A DNA stretch of 64,000 nt. Source: Rhodospirillales bacterium BBD 1991-14 (GTDB lineage Bacteria > Pseudomonadota > Alphaproteobacteria > Kiloniellales > Kiloniellaceae). The stretch covers positions 1,054,001 to 1,118,000 of the forward strand of contig LYSY01000001.1 in assembly GCA_001657395.1 (NCBI GenBank). The letters are read 5' to 3'. The notes under the pieces were generated by a model that saw only the letters and a program-made list of their open reading frames with translations, was not told the origin of the DNA and did not search any database. The stretch's first letter is position 1. The number at the start of each line of letters is the position of its first letter. Of this stretch, positions 39,087 to 47,406 are shown in pieces. Both the position numbers and the translations under genes were made by a program.

Positions 39087-39179
39087 TGGCGGACAGGGAG
39101 GGATTCGAACCCTCGATGCAGCTCTTAACCACATACTCCCTTAGCAGGGGAGCGCCTTCAGCCACTCGGCCACCTGTCC
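39087..39179 (-). tRNA. tRNA-Ser (anticodon GCU)
   Basis: This is a class II tRNA with a long variable arm. The acceptor GGACAGG (39179-39173) pairs with CCTGTCC, the discriminator is G and CCA is encoded (39089-39087). The anticodon loop CTGCTAA is flanked by a CTCCC/GGGAG stem. The T-arm carries GGTTCGAATCC. The anticodon GCU reads AGC/AGU codons. Confidence 0.95.
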
Positions 39180-40864: not shown

Positions 40865-42355
40865 CTACCGCTCTAAGTCTTCCGCAATAGCTTCGAATTG
40901 CACCAGCGCGGCTTGCAAATCATCGACGATCTCGGATGCCAATGTCGCTGGATCCAAGACACTCTCGCCACCCTCGATCTCTTCTTGGAGCCAGGCTATG
41001 TCGAGCCTGCACTCTCCTTGGCTCGTAAGTTCCTCATAGTCAAAGGAACGCCACCGTCCAGATTGGTTCTTCGATGACCAAGTAGCTCGCCGGCGTCCAT
41101 ATTCGCCTGGTTTGAAGCATTTAACGAACTCGTCCAGATCAGGCCGTTGTATCGGATTTGATTTCAGTGTGACATGAAAGTTTGTTCTCAGGTCATATAT
41201 CCACAACTTCTTCGTATGGGGACCACCTTTCCTCTTTGGCTTGTTGAAAAAGAGCACGTTTGCCTTAACACCTCCCGCATAGAAGATACCGGTTGGCAAT
41301 CGAAGCAACGTATGGACTTCACACTCGTAGAGCAGGCGTCTGCGGATTTTTTCGCCCGCTCCTGCCTCGAATAGTACATTATCCGGCACTACGATTGCGG
41401 CGCGTCCATTTGATTTTAATATGGTGTTGACGTGTTGTAGAAAATTCAATTGTTTGTTTGAGGTAGAAGTCCAGAAATCTTCACGAAATATCGTCAAATC
41501 TCGGATGTGATTTTCTTCGAGATCGCGAAGAATAGTTACGCTGGACTTTTTCCCAAATGGCGGATTCGTGACGACGACGTCATATCGATCACCACGATCT
41601 ACAGCTAGGCTATCTGTGATCGTGATTGGTGGAGGCGCTTCATCTGCCGACGGACCGATGCCGTGAAGCAAGAGATTCATCGCACCAAGCCGTGCCACCG
41701 CAGGGACCAGTTCATCCCCCCGTATCGCGCGAAGACGCAACAGCTCTTTTTGCTTTTTCGTCAATCGATGATTAGTCTCCCGAATATAACTAACAGCCGC
41801 TAATAGGAACCCACAACTACCGCAGGCCGGATCGCAAATGGTATCAGATGGCTTAGGTTGAATTACGTCTATAATCGCTTGTATGACTGGCCTGGGCGTA
41901 AAATATTGTCCGGCGCCACTTTTTGTGTCCTGCGCGTTCTTTTCCAGTAGCCCCTCGTATGCGTCTCCTTTCACGTCCGCATCTAGAGCACTCCAGTTTT
42001 CCTTTTCTATTAGGTCATTCACTAAGAGAGCCAGTTTGGCAGGGTCACGAATTTTGCTCTCAGCTCCTTTGAAAATGACACCAAGCATCCCCGGCCCATT
42101 TCCCAGCTCTCTAAGCACATTGCTGTAGTGATCCTGCAGCTGCCGATTGTCAGGTTTCGAAACCAAGCTGCCCCAATTGAACGCTTCTGGGACAATATCG
42201 GGATGTCCATCTTCTCCTTTTTGCTCGTAAGCCATCTTCAAAAAAAGCAGGTACGTTAGCTGTTCGACATAGTCCGGATACGACAACCCATCATCTCTGA
42301 GGATATTGCAGTAGCGCCAAAGCTTTTGAACGATTTGTTGAGATGTGGTGGGCAC
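40865..42355 (-). CDS. hsdM: Type I restriction-modification DNA methyltransferase subunit (HsdM)
   Basis: This N6-adenine methyltransferase of the type I M-subunit family has the N-terminal HsdM helical domain (PDYVEQLTYLLFLKMA), GQYFTPRPV, SAM motif I DPACGSCGF and catalytic motif IV NPPF (residues ~264-267). In motif I the usual second glycine is cysteine. I chose the GTG at 42355 (AGTAGGAA upstream, product begins MPTTSQQIVQKLW) over the ATG at 42400, which would overlap the HNH gene by 34 bp. It is the last gene of the operon and AT-richer than the chromosome. Confidence 0.9.
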   Translation of the reverse strand: MPTTSQQIVQKLWRYCNILRDDGLSYPDYVEQLTYLLFLKMAYEQKGEDGHPDIVPEAFNWGSLVSKPDNRQLQDHYSNVLRELGNGPGMLGVIFKGAESKIRDPAKLALLVNDLIEKENWSALDADVKGDAYEGLLEKNAQDTKSGAGQYFTPRPVIQAIIDVIQPKPSDTICDPACGSCGFLLAAVSYIRETNHRLTKKQKELLRLRAIRGDELVPAVARLGAMNLLLHGIGPSADEAPPPITITDSLAVDRGDRYDVVVTNPPFGKKSSVTILRDLEENHIRDLTIFREDFWTSTSNKQLNFLQHVNTILKSNGRAAIVVPDNVLFEAGAGEKIRRRLLYECEVHTLLRLPTGIFYAGGVKANVLFFNKPKRKGGPHTKKLWIYDLRTNFHVTLKSNPIQRPDLDEFVKCFKPGEYGRRRATWSSKNQSGRWRSFDYEELTSQGECRLDIAWLQEEIEGGESVLDPATLASEIVDDLQAALVQFEAIAEDLER

Positions 42356-42366
42356 GTTCGTTGTTC

Positions 42367-43215
42367 CTACTGGTGTGTTGCGAGAATCGGCTCGATCCAC
42401 GGATGTTCGGCTCGGTAAGCAATAAGCATCGCTCTAGCGGCCGCAGAATGCTCTGCTTTCGGATGAATTATCTCGCCAATAGTCCGGAGTGCCGCCTCCA
42501 AGGCTTGTACTGCCGCGTTATTGTCTACATTCACAGATCTAAATTGAATGTCTGTTTGCTTAATGAGCCTCAAGAGCTTTGAATGAAGGTCTCGACGCTT
42601 GGTTTTTACCTTAGTTTCGTTCAGGTGATATAGCTCAATCGAAGTTTGAGCGCGCTTGTTGAACACCTGATTCTGATCCTCACCATATCTCTCTACAGCT
42701 CGGCCATCCGGCTCAAACCACAATAGAGTAGGATCCGTTGAACTTACCGGGTCCAGAAGCGCCGGCTGTTCAAACGAACAATCGTCACCTTCCGCATAGG
42801 ACCGCTTGCTCTCGTCCATTAATGGAAAGTGGTCATGCTTACCACCTGCCTCGGAGGTCTTCCTATCTTTTCTTCGGCTATTACAAAACGTACATGAATA
42901 GCGATAATTCCTGAAATCAAAGGCTAACCACCAATAACCTTCATGGTGATCTGCCTCTTCAACCCGGCCCTTGGGCCGGAAATGATCAACCGCATTGTCC
43001 GACCGAACTTCTAGGGATTCACAATACCAGCATTTGTCATGTGATACTGATGCAAGAATCTCTTTAAGCTCTCGCCAGAGCTCTGCTTTCTGTTGAAGAA
43101 GTTGAGCGCGGTTTGCAGGTTCTGCGGCCCGAATCTCTTCTAGCGCCTGTTGCGCGCGCTCTACCCAACCTTCCGGGAGCTCTTCTTCCAATTCGTCCGT
43201 ATTAATACATCTCAC
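42367..43215 (-). CDS. HNH endonuclease, PtuB-like
   Basis: This 282-residue nuclease has the zinc/HNH pattern CWYC (62-65), DHFRPKG (77-83; catalytic His78) and CTFCNSRRKDR (108 onward), with YWWLAFDFRNY between. This arrangement is that of PtuB-type HNH proteins of the Septu defence system and retron-associated PtuAB. It is translationally coupled to the ATPase gene by a 4-bp overlap and lies 11 bp before hsdM. It probably cuts DNA or nucleic acid when the ATPase is triggered. Confidence 0.85.
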   Translation of the reverse strand: MRCINTDELEEELPEGWVERAQQALEEIRAAEPANRAQLLQQKAELWRELKEILASVSHDKCWYCESLEVRSDNAVDHFRPKGRVEEADHHEGYWWLAFDFRNYRYSCTFCNSRRKDRKTSEAGGKHDHFPLMDESKRSYAEGDDCSFEQPALLDPVSSTDPTLLWFEPDGRAVERYGEDQNQVFNKRAQTSIELYHLNETKVKTKRRDLHSKLLRLIKQTDIQFRSVNVDNNAAVQALEAALRTIGEIIHPKAEHSAAARAMLIAYRAEHPWIEPILATHQ

Positions 43216-44765
43216 TTTGGCACTTCCTCAGTCTTGATTTTTTCAATAACCTCGAGTGCCTTTTTTTTCTGTTCTTCCTGTTCCTCTTTCGAGAGCCTAG
43301 GTTTTTGTAAGCCATGCCTATGCTCCCACTCCGTCATGGCATCCACGAAACGCTTGTAAAGGGGATCTCGGTCAGTCCTAGTGAAGTCTTGCTCTTCCAC
43401 CCAAATGTTCAACTTACGAAGGTTTTCTTCCTCTTCGGGAGTTAAATGTTCCTTGATGGCAAGCCGCCGTCTTAGGTCGAGCTGTTCTAGTGTTTCTGGG
43501 TCCAACTCCGACCGCAATCCATAGACGTCACTCATAAGTAAACCGGAAATGCCCATTCCAACTGGATCTCTCTCTGGGTGTTCTCCGGTAACCCGCCCCG
43601 CTTGATCGCGTCTCATGACATGCACTTGGTCAGCGCGGAGGCCAGCAACAACCAATGGATCATGAGTGGCCATCAGGACATGACTAGAATAATCCTTCGT
43701 TACTGTTTCGTTCAGCAATTGGACGTAGTTCAAACTCCACGCAGGATTAAGGTGAGTATCAGGTTCATCAAGGAGGATGAGCGACTCTTCTTCTCTGGTG
43801 AATCGGAGTAATCCAAGTACCATCAAAAGCTGTTGCTCGCCTTCACTCAGCTCACGGAATGTTAGGCTGCTGTCAACGCCCTTAATGACCACTCTCGCTC
43901 TTACATCTTCGACAAGATCAGCAAGATGCATGCTGTCCAAAGCTTTGAAGAACTCCCGGCCCGATTCATAAGAACGTCCAAACTCCTGAAGATCTCTCTT
44001 GTCCTTAAGATACAGATACAACCGGTCCAACGATCGGCCCCGTGTTCCGCTAGCTTTTCGGCGCAATGGCGCTAATGACTGCTGATGTAGTTTATCTAGT
44101 AAATCGCGGACTACACCTACAGCGCCCCAAAACCTTGGATCACCTCGCTTCAGTCGTGCGGAGCTATACCAATGAGGACGCTTAAGGACAAAAAGCACGG
44201 AATCAAGATCTTGAATCCTTAGGTAATCTTGTAGAAATTTTCTTTGGTTCGGATCGTCCTCCCAAAAAAAGGCTAAGAGAGCAAATTTGCTGTGTAGCAA
44301 GCTTATGTATAGCAGCGGCCTGAGAGGCTGATCCCTCCCCGCCCTTAGCTCCCTATCGAATTGATCCTCGTGCTTCTCAAAATGAGACAGCATGCGATCA
44401 CTGTGCCCTGAGTAATACACAAAGACATTGCTCGGTAAGCTCTTGCCTCCTCCACGACGAGAAAATTGTTGGATCGGGATCCTATTTCCGCCCACTAGAA
44501 TGTGTAAAGAATCCGACCCTACACGCTCGGGATCTGCTTTAATGCTTACTAGCTGGCCACGACATGTGTACTCAATTTGGTACGCAAATGCCGGCGGTTC
44601 GCCGAGATCAAGATCGCGGAATATGACGACTAGAGCTTCGAGTAAGTTTGATTTAGCAGTTGCATTTCGTCCGACCAGCACAGATGTAAATGACTCTTCG
44701 CTGAACTTAACGCGAAAGTCTTCTAAATTCTTCCACTTCGGTATATGGAGCGAAGTCAGGCGCAT
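43212..44765 (-). CDS. AAA/ABC-type ATPase, PtuA-like
   Basis: This 517-residue SMC/RecF-like ATPase has a Walker A at residues 32-39 reading GRNATAKS, with Ala where Gly normally precedes the lysine. The signature LSEGEQQ is at 306-312, Walker B LILLDEPD at 329-336, then HLNPAW and H-loop ATHDP (~366-370). The C-terminal ~100 residues are charged and helical, ending in a Lys/Glu tail. Its ATG overlaps the hsdS stop (TGATG), and its 3' end overlaps the HNH gene. The pair matches Septu PtuA/PtuB in architecture. Confidence 0.85.
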   Translation of the reverse strand: MRLTSLHIPKWKNLEDFRVKFSEESFTSVLVGRNATAKSNLLEALVVIFRDLDLGEPPAFAYQIEYTCRGQLVSIKADPERVGSDSLHILVGGNRIPIQQFSRRGGGKSLPSNVFVYYSGHSDRMLSHFEKHEDQFDRELRAGRDQPLRPLLYISLLHSKFALLAFFWEDDPNQRKFLQDYLRIQDLDSVLFVLKRPHWYSSARLKRGDPRFWGAVGVVRDLLDKLHQQSLAPLRRKASGTRGRSLDRLYLYLKDKRDLQEFGRSYESGREFFKALDSMHLADLVEDVRARVVIKGVDSSLTFRELSEGEQQLLMVLGLLRFTREEESLILLDEPDTHLNPAWSLNYVQLLNETVTKDYSSHVLMATHDPLVVAGLRADQVHVMRRDQAGRVTGEHPERDPVGMGISGLLMSDVYGLRSELDPETLEQLDLRRRLAIKEHLTPEEEENLRKLNIWVEEQDFTRTDRDPLYKRFVDAMTEWEHRHGLQKPRLSKEEQEEQKKKALEVIEKIKTEEVPK

Positions 44766-46555
44766 CAGGCGGCAATCTCGATGTAACTTAGATTAGCGTC
44801 TTCCGTCTCGGAGGCATCCTTGTTGCGAGATTCGCGAATTCTCCCTAGTTCAAGTTCAGCCTTTAGACCTTCGTAGAACTCATCGACGGTTTGATCGTCG
44901 AAGCCACATTGCTCAAACAGTTCGGCCGCCGTGAGCCTTCCACCAGCACTCATAAGTGCGTCATATATTGGTAGTCGAGTTCTTCGGGGCATAGCGCTAC
45001 TCACTTTTGGGGTTATCGTTTTGGCCCTACGTTTGGTGCTGTCACCCGGCTTGTCCCTTAGAAGCACCTCAATTTCCGCGAGCAGGTCCTTTCCGCTTCC
45101 CTCACTTGGGTCTTGAGGGATCAAGCGTCCACCAAAGGCCTTAGCCAGAATCGATCGTCGTAATGTAATCCCCCTCTGAATTAGGGAATTAATCGTCTGC
45201 TCTTGTACGGAGATGATTGACAGAAGCCTTTTGACCTCGGCGACGATGCGTTTCTGCTCCGCGACCGGTGGCAAGGGAAAACGCATGGCCGCGAAGCGCT
45301 TCAGTCCCAAGTGGGCAATATTCGTAGACCAGCGAGCAATACGTTGGAATTTCTTGGAATGGAAGTAGTGCCTGAAAACTATGAGGGCGAACTCGGGATC
45401 GATTCCCTCTCCGGTGCGCACACGAATAAGAGTGTTCTGAAAACACACGTTCGGCACTTCTCCTCGAAACAAGGCGGGTCGGCCCACCAGTTCCAAGCTT
45501 TGTCCCTCATTTAGTAGAATGTCTCCGTGCCTAACGTGATACACCTCGTACTCTTCTGGAGTGAAGTTCATTGACTTGACGTCAGAGGTGTCAATTCGAT
45601 CCTCAAAGACATTCGCTACACGGAGATACGGTCGAAGATGGGGCCCGGTATGGTGTTTCGGTGATCGTTGCCTACCGAGCCGAACCTCGCCGATGTCTCC
45701 GACCAAAGCCCAAGCCCATCCTTCCGGCAAGGGTTCATCGTTGTTTGTGGCACCTTTGGGTGCCTGAGCGTCCCAAAATGTGGGTTCAGCCTTGCTCCCC
45801 GTTGCTCTTATGTGCAGGTTTCGCTTTATTTTCTGCAGAAGCACAGAAGCTGGTTCAAAGGGTCTAAGCTCTCTTCGGGCGAGTTCAGCTTCGTTAGCGA
45901 CGAGTTTACCGCTCACCGCACTTCTAAGGACTGACTGGCGATAAGCTGCGGCCTTTCTCTTGGAGCTCTCTAGCGAGGCTCTGGACGCCGCCAAGCGACT
46001 GAATTGCGTTTCGATTTCGTCAACAATTCGATGCTGTTCTTGAGATGGGGGAATGACAAGAAGCACGGTTTCGCTGATCGTGCGTATCGACACGCTTGCT
46101 TGATTTACATGTTGCTTCGACAGATTCCTGAAATAACCTGTCATCCACAAATAGTGCAGCTGATGTGCCATGAAGCGATATGACAAACTAGGCGCAAATC
46201 TCAAAATTGTCATGTGATTCGAATAAGACCAATCTGCGCTGATATCTATCGATGAAGTTTTCCCGATCAATTCTCTACTGTTTGTATTGTTGAAAATCAC
46301 GTCTCCCTTCTGGACCTTCGGAAACTCGTCAATAAGCTCCTCCGGCGCATACCTCACGTCCGACAGGTCTATCCGCCCCTCTCGCGTGATATTCATTGGC
46401 CGCAAATGAACAAACCCAGGTGGCTCTAAAGAATGACGTCCACTTGCTTTTCCAGATCGAATCTCGACAACGAGATCCCCTACCTGAGCCACTGCCCAGC
46501 TCGGGGGTAACTCATTCAATTCTATCGGATAGTTGTGCTTAATCGCAGAGTTCAT
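44765..46555 (-). CDS. hsdS: Type I restriction-modification specificity subunit (HsdS) with C-terminal extension
   Basis: This is the DNA-recognition subunit of a type I methyltransferase. The 596 aa hold two target-recognition domains (residues ~10-150 and ~265-410), each followed by a helical conserved region (QEQHRIVDEIETQFSRL, and AEQKRIVAEVKRLLS). Each recognises half of a bipartite site. The last ~100 residues are an extra winged-helix-like module (LPIYDALMSAGGRLTAAELF...) not found in textbook HsdS of ~400-470 aa. It is the first gene of the operon, and no hsdR is present. Confidence 0.9.
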   Translation of the reverse strand: MNSAIKHNYPIELNELPPSWAVAQVGDLVVEIRSGKASGRHSLEPPGFVHLRPMNITREGRIDLSDVRYAPEELIDEFPKVQKGDVIFNNTNSRELIGKTSSIDISADWSYSNHMTILRFAPSLSYRFMAHQLHYLWMTGYFRNLSKQHVNQASVSIRTISETVLLVIPPSQEQHRIVDEIETQFSRLAASRASLESSKRKAAAYRQSVLRSAVSGKLVANEAELARRELRPFEPASVLLQKIKRNLHIRATGSKAEPTFWDAQAPKGATNNDEPLPEGWAWALVGDIGEVRLGRQRSPKHHTGPHLRPYLRVANVFEDRIDTSDVKSMNFTPEEYEVYHVRHGDILLNEGQSLELVGRPALFRGEVPNVCFQNTLIRVRTGEGIDPEFALIVFRHYFHSKKFQRIARWSTNIAHLGLKRFAAMRFPLPPVAEQKRIVAEVKRLLSIISVQEQTINSLIQRGITLRRSILAKAFGGRLIPQDPSEGSGKDLLAEIEVLLRDKPGDSTKRRAKTITPKVSSAMPRRTRLPIYDALMSAGGRLTAAELFEQCGFDDQTVDEFYEGLKAELELGRIRESRNKDASETEDANLSYIEIAA

Positions 46556-46614: not shown

Positions 46615-47031
46615 TTACGCGCTATCCTTTTGTTTGAATGGGTTAAAGACTGGAGCACCTAATGCTTGGAAGTCTCTTACGTTCCGCGTGGCAACAGTCA
46701 AATTCCTTGCCACGGCCGTCGCGGCAATCATCGCGTCCTCAATGATCGTGTCGGACTTGCGATGCTTGAGACGCGCCCACTCCCTGAAGGCAGTCGCATC
46801 CATCGGTAAGATGCCGTAGCCCGCCACGACCTGGTCGAGCCAGTGTTCCAATTCTTCCGCCTTGGTCACATCTTGCTCTCGAGTGATCTCAATACCCGCC
46901 TGTATCTCCCCAACCGTAACTGCGGACAGAAAAAGCTGGTCCGCCGGTACATCCGCAATCCAGTTAAGGACGGCCTTATGTGGCTTGGGGCGCCGCAACT
47001 CCGAAACGACGTTGGTGTCGAGAAGATACAC
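46615..47031 (-). CDS. vapC: VapC-type PIN-domain toxin
   Basis: This is a 138-residue PIN ribonuclease. Acidic active-site residues are visible: D5 in LLDTNVVSELRR, E in VGEIQAGIE, D in DTIIEDAMIAATA and D in VRDFQALG. VapC toxins cleave tRNA or rRNA to halt translation. It is encoded 4 bp after its antitoxin gene. It lies 59 bp upstream of hsdS in the same direction. Confidence 0.92.
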   Translation of the reverse strand: MYLLDTNVVSELRRPKPHKAVLNWIADVPADQLFLSAVTVGEIQAGIEITREQDVTKAEELEHWLDQVVAGYGILPMDATAFREWARLKHRKSDTIIEDAMIAATAVARNLTVATRNVRDFQALGAPVFNPFKQKDSA

Positions 47032-47035
47032 CGGC

Positions 47036-47296
47036 CTACTCGAAGATCGGTGTCGCGCGGTGGCGGTGCTTCTTACGCGGTGGCGTAAGCATGTCGGTTC
47101 GTGCCTTCGGCGTTAGGAGCAGGTCCTTTAGATTTGGCTTCGTCATCTTTTCCAATCTCCGCCATTGCTCGATCGGGACGAGCACGGCCGCCTCCACGCC
47201 GCGCTTGGTCACGATCTGCGGCCCTTCCGAGAGGCTCGCCTCGAGAAGCTCACTGAAACGCGCCTTCGCGTCCTGAACCTGCCATGTCTTGCCCAT
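47036..47296 (-). CDS. Phd/YefM-family antitoxin
   Basis: This is an 86-residue antitoxin with the N-terminal Phd/YefM DNA-binding domain (WQVQDAKARFSELLEASL, then GPQIVTKRGVEAAVLVP). The C-terminal tail, rich in basic and Pro residues, probably wraps the toxin. I chose the ATG at 47296; an open frame continues to 47368 but lacks conserved sequence. Like relatives, it likely represses its own operon at the repeated site just upstream. Confidence 0.9.
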   Translation of the reverse strand: MGKTWQVQDAKARFSELLEASLSEGPQIVTKRGVEAAVLVPIEQWRRLEKMTKPNLKDLLLTPKARTDMLTPPRKKHRHRATPIFE

Positions 47297-47317
47297 GCAT
47301 CCTCCGACGCCCTTTAT

Positions 47318-47340
47318 TCTGACTAGGTATATGACTAGTC
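47318..47340 (-). promoter_or_regulatory. Candidate Phd operator/promoter
   Basis: TGACTAG occurs twice (47,320-47,326 and 47,332-47,338), 12 bp centre to centre, on either side of GTATA. The second copy is part of the palindrome GACTAGTC. It lies 24-44 bp upstream of the antitoxin start. Spacing near one helical turn fits autoregulation by Phd dimers. Confidence 0.45.
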
Positions 47341-47406
47341 TGAGCCAAAAGCAATTGCAAAGATGCACTACAGCGCAGCGACGAAACCCTAAAATTTTAG
47401 AGGATG

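What the first reader, a model, noticed from the sequence alone, without database searches (positions are those of the whole stretch)
40865..46555. Hybrid operon: type I HsdS and HsdM with a PtuA-like ATPase and PtuB-like HNH nuclease in place of HsdR
Four leftward genes are coupled by overlaps or an 11-bp gap: hsdS, SMC-like ATPase, HNH nuclease, hsdM. No hsdR is in the window, and the Septu-type pair lies between the two methyltransferase genes, so this is not a side-by-side island. I infer a system in which HsdM/S marks self DNA and the ATPase/HNH pair does the cutting, either reading methylation state or triggered by the HsdS extension. Both component families are known; this combination as one unit is what deserves attention.
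Basis: partly seen in the sequence, partly recalled or inferred. Interest (0 to 1): 0.88.

Follow-up and report, generated by a model that had tools for sequence, protein, structure and literature searches.

The report
Methylase-coupled Septu defence operon without HsdR
Many bacteria, and one archaeal genome seen here, carry a four-gene cassette in which the DNA-marking half of a type I restriction system is tied to a Septu-type nuclease pair, so an immune system may label its own DNA and turn an unusual nuclease on the rest, often without the classical cutting enzyme.

Summary
The four genes are real, overlapping and co-directional: hsdS, PtuA-like ATPase, PtuB-like HNH nuclease, hsdM (40865-46555, minus strand), low-GC cargo beside a Trb-type conjugation cluster. 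Three HsdR domain models find nothing in the genome. The combination is not accidental: of 80 loci kept by ATPase similarity alone, 73 have all four genes and six of the seven exceptions end at a contig edge. The block hsdS-ptuA-ptuB is fixed, hsdM sits on either side, and hsdR is optional: 30 loci have it, 34 (with the window) do not, 17 cannot be judged. So 'in place of HsdR' fits this locus and about half its kin but does not define the family. HsdS proteins of the set carry a C-terminal domain of about 50 residues (86 of 95) that 33 ordinary HsdS proteins lack: a candidate dock for PtuA. hsdR-less loci keep methylase and nuclease motifs and swap HsdS recognition domains, as a working self/non-self system would. 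Best reading: a methylation-licensed Septu system, a new variant of known parts; trigger and target untested. Main rival: a PrrC-like guarded toxin. This copy lacks the Walker A glycine that 90 of 91 ATPases keep, so it may be weak or dead.

The parts
44765..46555 (-). hsdS, specificity subunit, 596 aa
   Evidence: PADLOC Specificity_I 271 bits; Pfam Methylase_S
44828..44968 (-). C-terminal HsdS tail domain (residues about 530-575)
   Evidence: Model built: 86 of 95 HsdS of the set, 0 of 33 ordinary HsdS; coordinates computed from residue numbers
43212..44765 (-). PtuA-like ATPase, 517 aa; Walker A reads GRNATAKSN
   Evidence: PADLOC PtuA 591 bits; Foldseek; Walker A compared
42367..43215 (-). 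PtuB-like HNH nuclease, 282 aa
   Evidence: PADLOC PtuB 310 bits; Foldseek; His78, Asn103, Asn112 in 90 of 90
40865..42400 (-). hsdM, N6-adenine methylase subunit, 511 aa
   Evidence: PADLOC MTase_I 589 bits; N6_Mtase and HsdM_N; NPPF motif

Best explanation
A methylation-licensed Septu system. HsdM and HsdS form an adenine methyltransferase that marks the host's own sites. HsdS, through its extra C-terminal domain, also holds or addresses a PtuA-PtuB complex. When HsdS meets unmodified sites on incoming phage or plasmid DNA, the PtuA ATPase changes state and releases the HNH nuclease PtuB, which cuts nucleic acid: the incoming DNA, or a host tRNA as reported for one Septu and retron-Eco7. HsdR, where present, adds ordinary translocating cleavage but is not needed. 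Shown here: the anatomy, its conservation, that hsdR is optional, retained active-site residues, turnover of recognition domains, and the HsdS tail. Inferred: the complex, the trigger and the target. In the window itself the Walker A change may have weakened or killed the ATPase.
For: 73 of 80 loci kept by ATPase similarity hold all four genes; hsdS lies within 100 bp of the ATPase in 74 of 80 and the HNH gene within 150 bp in 78 of 80. hsdS-A-H order has no violation in the 80, while hsdM changes side at least 11 times and hsdR changes state at least 14 times on the ATPase tree (200 shuffles: 17-31). Of 34 genomes with an hsdR-less quartet, 24 lack EcoEI_R_C and 12 lack both EcoEI_R_C and HSDR_N. 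EcoEI-type HsdR genes in the other 10 genomes sit with their own hsdM (13 of 13 regions) and hsdS (12 of 13). HsdS tail: 86 of 95 in the set, 0 of 33 ordinary HsdS, 2 of 2 later loci. In hsdR-less pairs with ATPase >=70% and HsdM >=65% identity, 30 of 38 have an 80-residue HsdS stretch under 30% beside one of 60% or more. HNH residues intact in 90 of 90; HsdM NPPF in 35 of 36 hsdR+ and 53 of 54 other rows, the two lacking it being short frames. dN below dS in the pairs where dS could be estimated.
Against: No experiment. PtuA is an ABC-type ATPase, not an HsdR-type translocase, so the type I collision mechanism is not expected. Published PtuAB targets differ (nicked DNA, or tRNA-Tyr; PMC11555353 and PMC13096335, passages), so DNA cutting is not assured. 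In 30 of 64 judged loci hsdR is present and PtuAB could be a back-up. The window copy lacks a Walker A glycine kept by 90 of 91. Recognition-domain turnover is also seen here in all 10 hsdR+ pairs, so it does not single out PtuAB as the restricting part; the 38 pairs come from few, related loci. SWI2_SNF2 matches exist in 27 of 34 genomes with hsdR-less quartets, though not in the window's.
Confidence: 0.5

Rival explanations
1. PrrC-like guard: PtuAB is a toxin kept silent by the HsdM/S (or R/M/S) complex and released when a phage protein inhibits that complex or damages DNA, so infected cells stop growing. HsdM/S would be bait rather than a site-directed sensor.
For: PrrC, DarTG2 and other effectors are known inside hsd loci (PMC12707154, PMC12255303, passages); a cloned PrrC locus holds HsdR, HsdS, PrrC, HsdM (PMC11555353, passage); PtuAB is held silent by RT-msDNA in retron-Eco7 (same paper); 30 judged loci keep hsdR.
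Against: 34 judged loci have no hsdR to guard; methylase motif and recognition-domain turnover persist there, which a bait would not need; in L067/L068 hsdS is split by an insertion sequence while A, H and M stay open, which argues against HsdS as a simple antitoxin, although the insertion may be polar and silence A and H.
Confidence: 0.25
2. Loose partnership: a type I methylase and a Septu pair travel together as two defence systems that share a promoter, without functional coupling.
For: Defence genes cluster and embed in each other generally (PMC12255303, passage). Septu pairs without hsdM/S exist outside this clade (4 regions, by annotation).
Against: Fixed hsdS-A-H order in 80 of 80 loci where present, 73 of 80 full quartets across at least 15 named phyla, and an HsdS tail found with the pair but in 0 of 33 ordinary HsdS.
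Confidence: 0.12
3. The window locus is a decaying copy: the ATPase is inactive and only the methylase still works.
For: Walker A GRNATAKSN; 90 of 91 aligned ATPases keep that glycine.
Against: All four frames are open with intact signature, Walker B and HNH residues; no close relative to compare (0 of 97 near genomes).
Confidence: 0.3
4. HsdR acts in trans: the quartet borrows an HsdR from another type I system.
For: 10 of 34 genomes with hsdR-less quartets have an EcoEI-type HsdR and 22 of 34 an HSDR_N match elsewhere.
Against: None in the window's genome; the 13 EcoEI-type regions have their own hsdM and 12 their own hsdS; 12 of 34 lack both models.
Confidence: 0.08

Closest known systems
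Septu (PtuA-PtuB)
   Same: Same two protein families by HMM and by fold; adjacent, overlapping genes
   Different: Here tied to hsdS and hsdM; the four more distant pairs looked at have no annotated hsdM/S nearby
Type I-A retrons (PADLOC Septu type II), e.g. retron-Eco7
   Same: PtuAB effector pair joined to another module that controls it (PMC11555353, PMC8565338, passages)
   Different: The partner is HsdM/HsdS, not a reverse transcriptase with msDNA
Type I restriction-modification with EcoEI-type HsdR
   Same: HsdM and HsdS; the HsdR of hsdR-bearing cassettes is of this kind
   Different: HsdR optional, PtuAB present, HsdS with an extra C-terminal domain; 0 of 33 EcoEI-type HsdR regions sampled hold the quartet pair
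PrrC and DarTG2 embedded in type I loci
   Same: Toxic effector genes inside hsd operons (PMC12707154, PMC12255303, passages)
   Different: Those described loci include hsdR; effectors are other families
NCBIfam TIGR04435 'restriction system-associated AAA family ATPase'
   Same: hsdM-hsdS-ATPase-next gene in named plasmids; the name shows that NCBI had noticed a link with restriction systems
   Different: Window ATPase 117 bits against a cut-off of 300; HsdS of L007-L009 lacks the tail; next gene resembles PADLOC PDC-M01B/M62B
MADS (methylation-associated defence system)
   Same: Methylase, specificity protein and ATPase in one system (model names; gene set recalled)
   Different: Window proteins far below the MAD2, MAD3 and MAD5 cut-offs

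Membership tests
Septu | PtuA-family ATPase | tested here: met
   591 bits, full length; Foldseek ranks 1-48 are entries of Septu or retron I-A complexes, with modest superposition (TM 0.30-0.45 by query)
Septu | PtuB-family HNH nuclease adjacent to ptuA | tested here: met
   310 bits; all 7 Foldseek hits with E <= 0.001 are Septu or retron I-A entries; 4-bp overlap
Septu | Intact Walker A in the ATPase | tested here: not met
   GRNATAKSN; 90 of 91 keep the last glycine. Bears on activity of this copy more than on kinship
Septu | Anti-phage activity | not testable with these tools
   no experiment
Type I restriction-modification | HsdM N6-adenine methylase | tested here: met
   N6_Mtase, HsdM_N
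Type I restriction-modification | HsdS specificity subunit | tested here: met
Type I restriction-modification | HsdR endonuclease/translocase | tested here: not met
   0 matches in the genome for three HsdR domain models
MADS | MAD2, MAD3, MAD5 above NCBIfam cut-offs | tested here: not met
   117 of 720, 41 of 420, 22 of 400 bits
TIGR04435 ATPase family | Score over the curated cut-off | tested here: not met
   117 bits against 300
PrrC-like guarded effector | Activation by inhibition of a restriction enzyme | not testable with these tools
   no experiment

The most novel reading that the evidence does not exclude
A separate class of modification-dependent immunity: HsdM/HsdS is a programmable self/non-self sensor that directly licenses a PtuA-PtuB complex through a dedicated HsdS tail, giving sequence-guided restriction without DNA translocation and without HsdR, with the HNH effector itself exchanged between related loci.
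Probability: 0.35. Interest if true: 0.85.

Novelty: new variant of a known kind. Interest (0 to 1): 0.7.

Why it matters
What triggers Septu is not settled, and type I systems are understood to restrict through HsdR. A widespread cassette that wires HsdM/HsdS to PtuAB would give Septu a defined, exchangeable sensor (the HsdS recognition domains), offers a testable docking domain, and suggests that PtuAB is a general effector plugged into different sensors: RT-msDNA in type I-A retrons, HsdM/S here. It also warns that family-by-family annotation will tend to split such loci into 'Septu' and 'orphan type I methylase'.

Tried and rejected
Another gene standing in for HsdR: co-directional neighbours within 500 bp of 37 hsdR-less loci were compared with each other and only L046/L048 matched, so no common substitute was seen. 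HsdR in trans: no match in the window's genome; the 13 EcoEI-type HsdR regions in 10 other genomes have their own hsdM (13) and hsdS (12). MADS and TIGR04435 membership: below cut-offs. A tblastn of the tail consensus against plasmids found nothing, not even the plasmid quartets already in hand, so it was uninformative. Pfam on five tails gave only matches below the curated cut-offs, two of them helix-turn-helix models. A first count of recognition-domain turnover included split or frameshifted hsdS genes; it was redone without L010, L011, L020, L029, L066, L067, L068 and L093 and with HsdS of at least 480 residues. The tree left out L006-L010 and L093. Literature: searches showed no paper on an HsdS-PtuAB-HsdM operon; only open-licence PMC papers are held and no preprints. 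Papers seen as passages: PMC11555353, PMC8565338, PMC13096335, PMC12707154, PMC12255303; the rest only as search listings. A 2024 preprint on embedded defence systems was seen only as a reference entry in PMC12255303 and may overlap. PMC12318543 (PtuAB structure) is not held.
Full report
WHAT IS THERE. Four minus-strand genes at 40865-46555 encode HsdS, an ABC/SMC-type ATPase, an HNH nuclease and HsdM, overlapping by 1, 4 and 34 bp (or with an 11-bp gap before hsdM if a later start is used). Best PADLOC models are Specificity_I (271 bits), PtuA (591), PtuB (310) and MTase_I (589). AlphaFold models of the ATPase and the nuclease have mean pLDDT 86.5 and 96.0. Foldseek ranks 1-48 for the ATPase are entries of Septu or type I-A retron complexes, and so are all 7 hits with E <= 0.001 for the nuclease; superposition is modest (TM by query 0.30-0.45 and 0.44-0.48). 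The cassette is 47-53% GC in 1-kb windows between flanks of about 59-70%. Beside it lies a Trb-type conjugation cluster, with 76-77% identical clusters in three genomes of the same order. The ATPase was found in 1 of 98 near genomes, the window's own; the three just named were among the 98. So the cassette looks like cargo.

NO HSDR FOUND. The held genome (5.51 Mb, 21 contigs) gave 0 matches for SWI2_SNF2, HSDR_N and EcoEI_R_C. Of eight HsdR proteins from relatives (seven from this clade, one from a TIGR04435-type locus) 8 match SWI2_SNF2, 8 EcoEI_R_C and 6 HSDR_N, so the first two are the fairer tests.

A CONSERVED UNIT. A scan of the GTDB species collection with the ATPase alignment gave 486 relatives, the best 80 of which were kept. 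Six of the seven exceptions have too little contig on the side of the missing gene; L043 (Tengunoibacter) is the one true exception. The 80 loci fall in 18 named phyla, full quartets in 15, with one archaeal quartet (Methanosarcina, L018). hsdS before ATPase before HNH holds without violation in the 80; hsdM comes before hsdS or after the HNH gene. In a sample of 398 genomes of the phylum, 3 hit, one being the window's own (only three candidates per genome were scored in the rows shown); the other two are hsdM-hsdS-A-H with no hsdR in 18.9 kb. Ten plasmid relatives were picked by eye from 47 records and are not in these counts; some are of another, TIGR04435-like, clade. Four more distant ATPase regions look like stand-alone pairs by annotation.

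HSDR IS OPTIONAL. Among the 80 loci plus the window, 30 have hsdR, 34 have the full quartet and at least 4.5 kb upstream without it, and 17 cannot be judged. In six of the 30 the hsdR frame is short: cut by the contig end (L038, L053, L054, L083) or short or broken (L031, L074); that of L054 lies 5.3 kb away. On the tree of 91 ATPases, with plasmid and viral loci added (34 with, 37 without hsdR scored), hsdR changes state at least 14 times against 17-31 (mean 24) in 200 shuffles: partly inherited, repeatedly gained or lost. In 34 genomes with hsdR-less quartets (own included), 10 have EcoEI_R_C and 22 HSDR_N; 12 have neither. SWI2_SNF2 is commoner, 27 of 34, but it also hits frames of about 520 residues that I take for other helicases. 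Of the 12, five (the window's genome among them) lack SWI2_SNF2 too and seven have only matches under 44 bits, below the 45 to 80 bits of the eight HsdR proteins. Many of these genomes are drafts or MAGs. I fetched 13 regions round the EcoEI-type HsdR genes of the 10 genomes: hsdM is near in 13, hsdS in 12, the PtuAB pair in none. They read as separate type I systems. In a further 20 EcoEI-type regions from a phylum sample, none has the quartet pair; one (L159) has a TIGR04435-like ATPase.

THE HSDS TAIL. A C-terminal domain of about 50 residues is in 86 of 95 HsdS of the set and in 0 of 33 ordinary HsdS: 32 from those 33 HsdR regions plus E. coli K-12. Models trained only on hsdR-bearing or only on hsdR-less loci recover 53 of 62 and 33 of 42 held-out proteins and no control; their domain limits came from the full model, so this is not fully independent. 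Two loci fetched later both have it. The nine without it are L006-L009 (TIGR04435-like clade), a fragment (L010), L067 and L068 (hsdS split by an insertion sequence; the second piece carries a tail-like stretch by eye), L005 and L032. L006-L009 show that an hsdS-ATPase neighbourhood can exist without the tail. That the tail docks PtuA is inference.

SIGNS OF FUNCTION. HNH residues His78, Asn103 and Asn112 are invariant in 90 of 90; the HsdM NPPF motif is in 35 of 36 hsdR-bearing and 53 of 54 other rows, the two without being short frames. In the pairs where dS could be estimated dN is lower than dS; the highest ratio is the HNH gene of L040/L059 (0.65 to 1.26). Among hsdR-less pairs with ATPase >=70% and HsdM >=65% identity, 30 of 38 show an 80-residue HsdS stretch under 30% beside one of at least 60%; hsdR-bearing pairs 10 of 10, mixed pairs 6 of 6. 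The pairs are not independent. The HNH protein diverges faster than the ATPase (mean identity over all pairs of 84 loci 32% against 44%) and is sometimes exchanged (L040/L059: ATPase 85%, HsdM 87%, HNH 32%).

WEAK POINTS. The window's Walker A is GRNATAKSN; 90 of 91 aligned ATPases keep the last glycine; the codon is GCT. With no close relative I cannot tell a working variant from decay. The survey covers only the clade nearest the window. HsdR was sought with four seed proteins and could miss an unrelated nuclease.

MECHANISM. Retained methylation, changing recognition domains and a dispensable HsdR suggest that HsdM/S tells self from non-self for PtuAB itself (0.5). A PrrC-like guard role is the chief alternative (0.25) and may suit hsdR-bearing loci. 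PtuA is ABC-type, not helicase-type, so translocation-driven cleavage is not expected (established knowledge of the families). Reported PtuAB targets: nicked DNA for Septu of E. coli ATCC25922, tRNA-Tyr for retron-Eco7 and Septu EcB88 (PMC11555353, PMC13096335; passages).

NOVELTY. Parts are known. The unit of tail-bearing HsdS, PtuAB and HsdM was not found in print in the ten searches listed under Tried and rejected, but the name of NCBIfam TIGR04435 shows that a link between a related ATPase and restriction systems had been noticed. I file it as a new variant of a known kind.

Noticed in passing
window 46615-47368: Phd-like antitoxin and PIN-domain toxin 59 bp upstream of hsdS on the same strand, between the cassette and the trb cluster.
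   Followed up: partly
L043 6488-14436: The one true exception: ATPase and HNH of this clade without hsdS/hsdM, beside genes that by eye look like a Ser/Thr kinase and an FHA protein, hinting at another sensor for the same effector pair.
   Followed up: partly
L067, L068 (hsdS region): Transposase frames split hsdS while ATPase, HNH and hsdM stay open (L068 read). L067 and L068 are identical in A, H and M and L066 has the same ATPase, in differently named organisms: recent transfer or contamination.
   Followed up: partly
L040/L059 and L055/L096: HNH nuclease at 32% and 28% identity while ATPase (85%, 73%) and HsdM (87%, 79%) stay similar: effector swapping.
   Followed up: partly
L007, L098, L099, L159: TIGR04435-like ATPase after hsdS, with or without hsdR; in the first three the next gene resembles PADLOC PDC-M01B/M62B. 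A sister family; L007-L009 HsdS lack the tail.
   Followed up: partly
L011: Titled Bacillus sp. but its ATPase is 84% identical to that of Methylobacterium ajmalii L012: transfer or mislabelled assembly.
   Followed up: no
window 39087-39179: tRNA-Ser near the left side of the cassette, a possible integration landmark.
   Followed up: no
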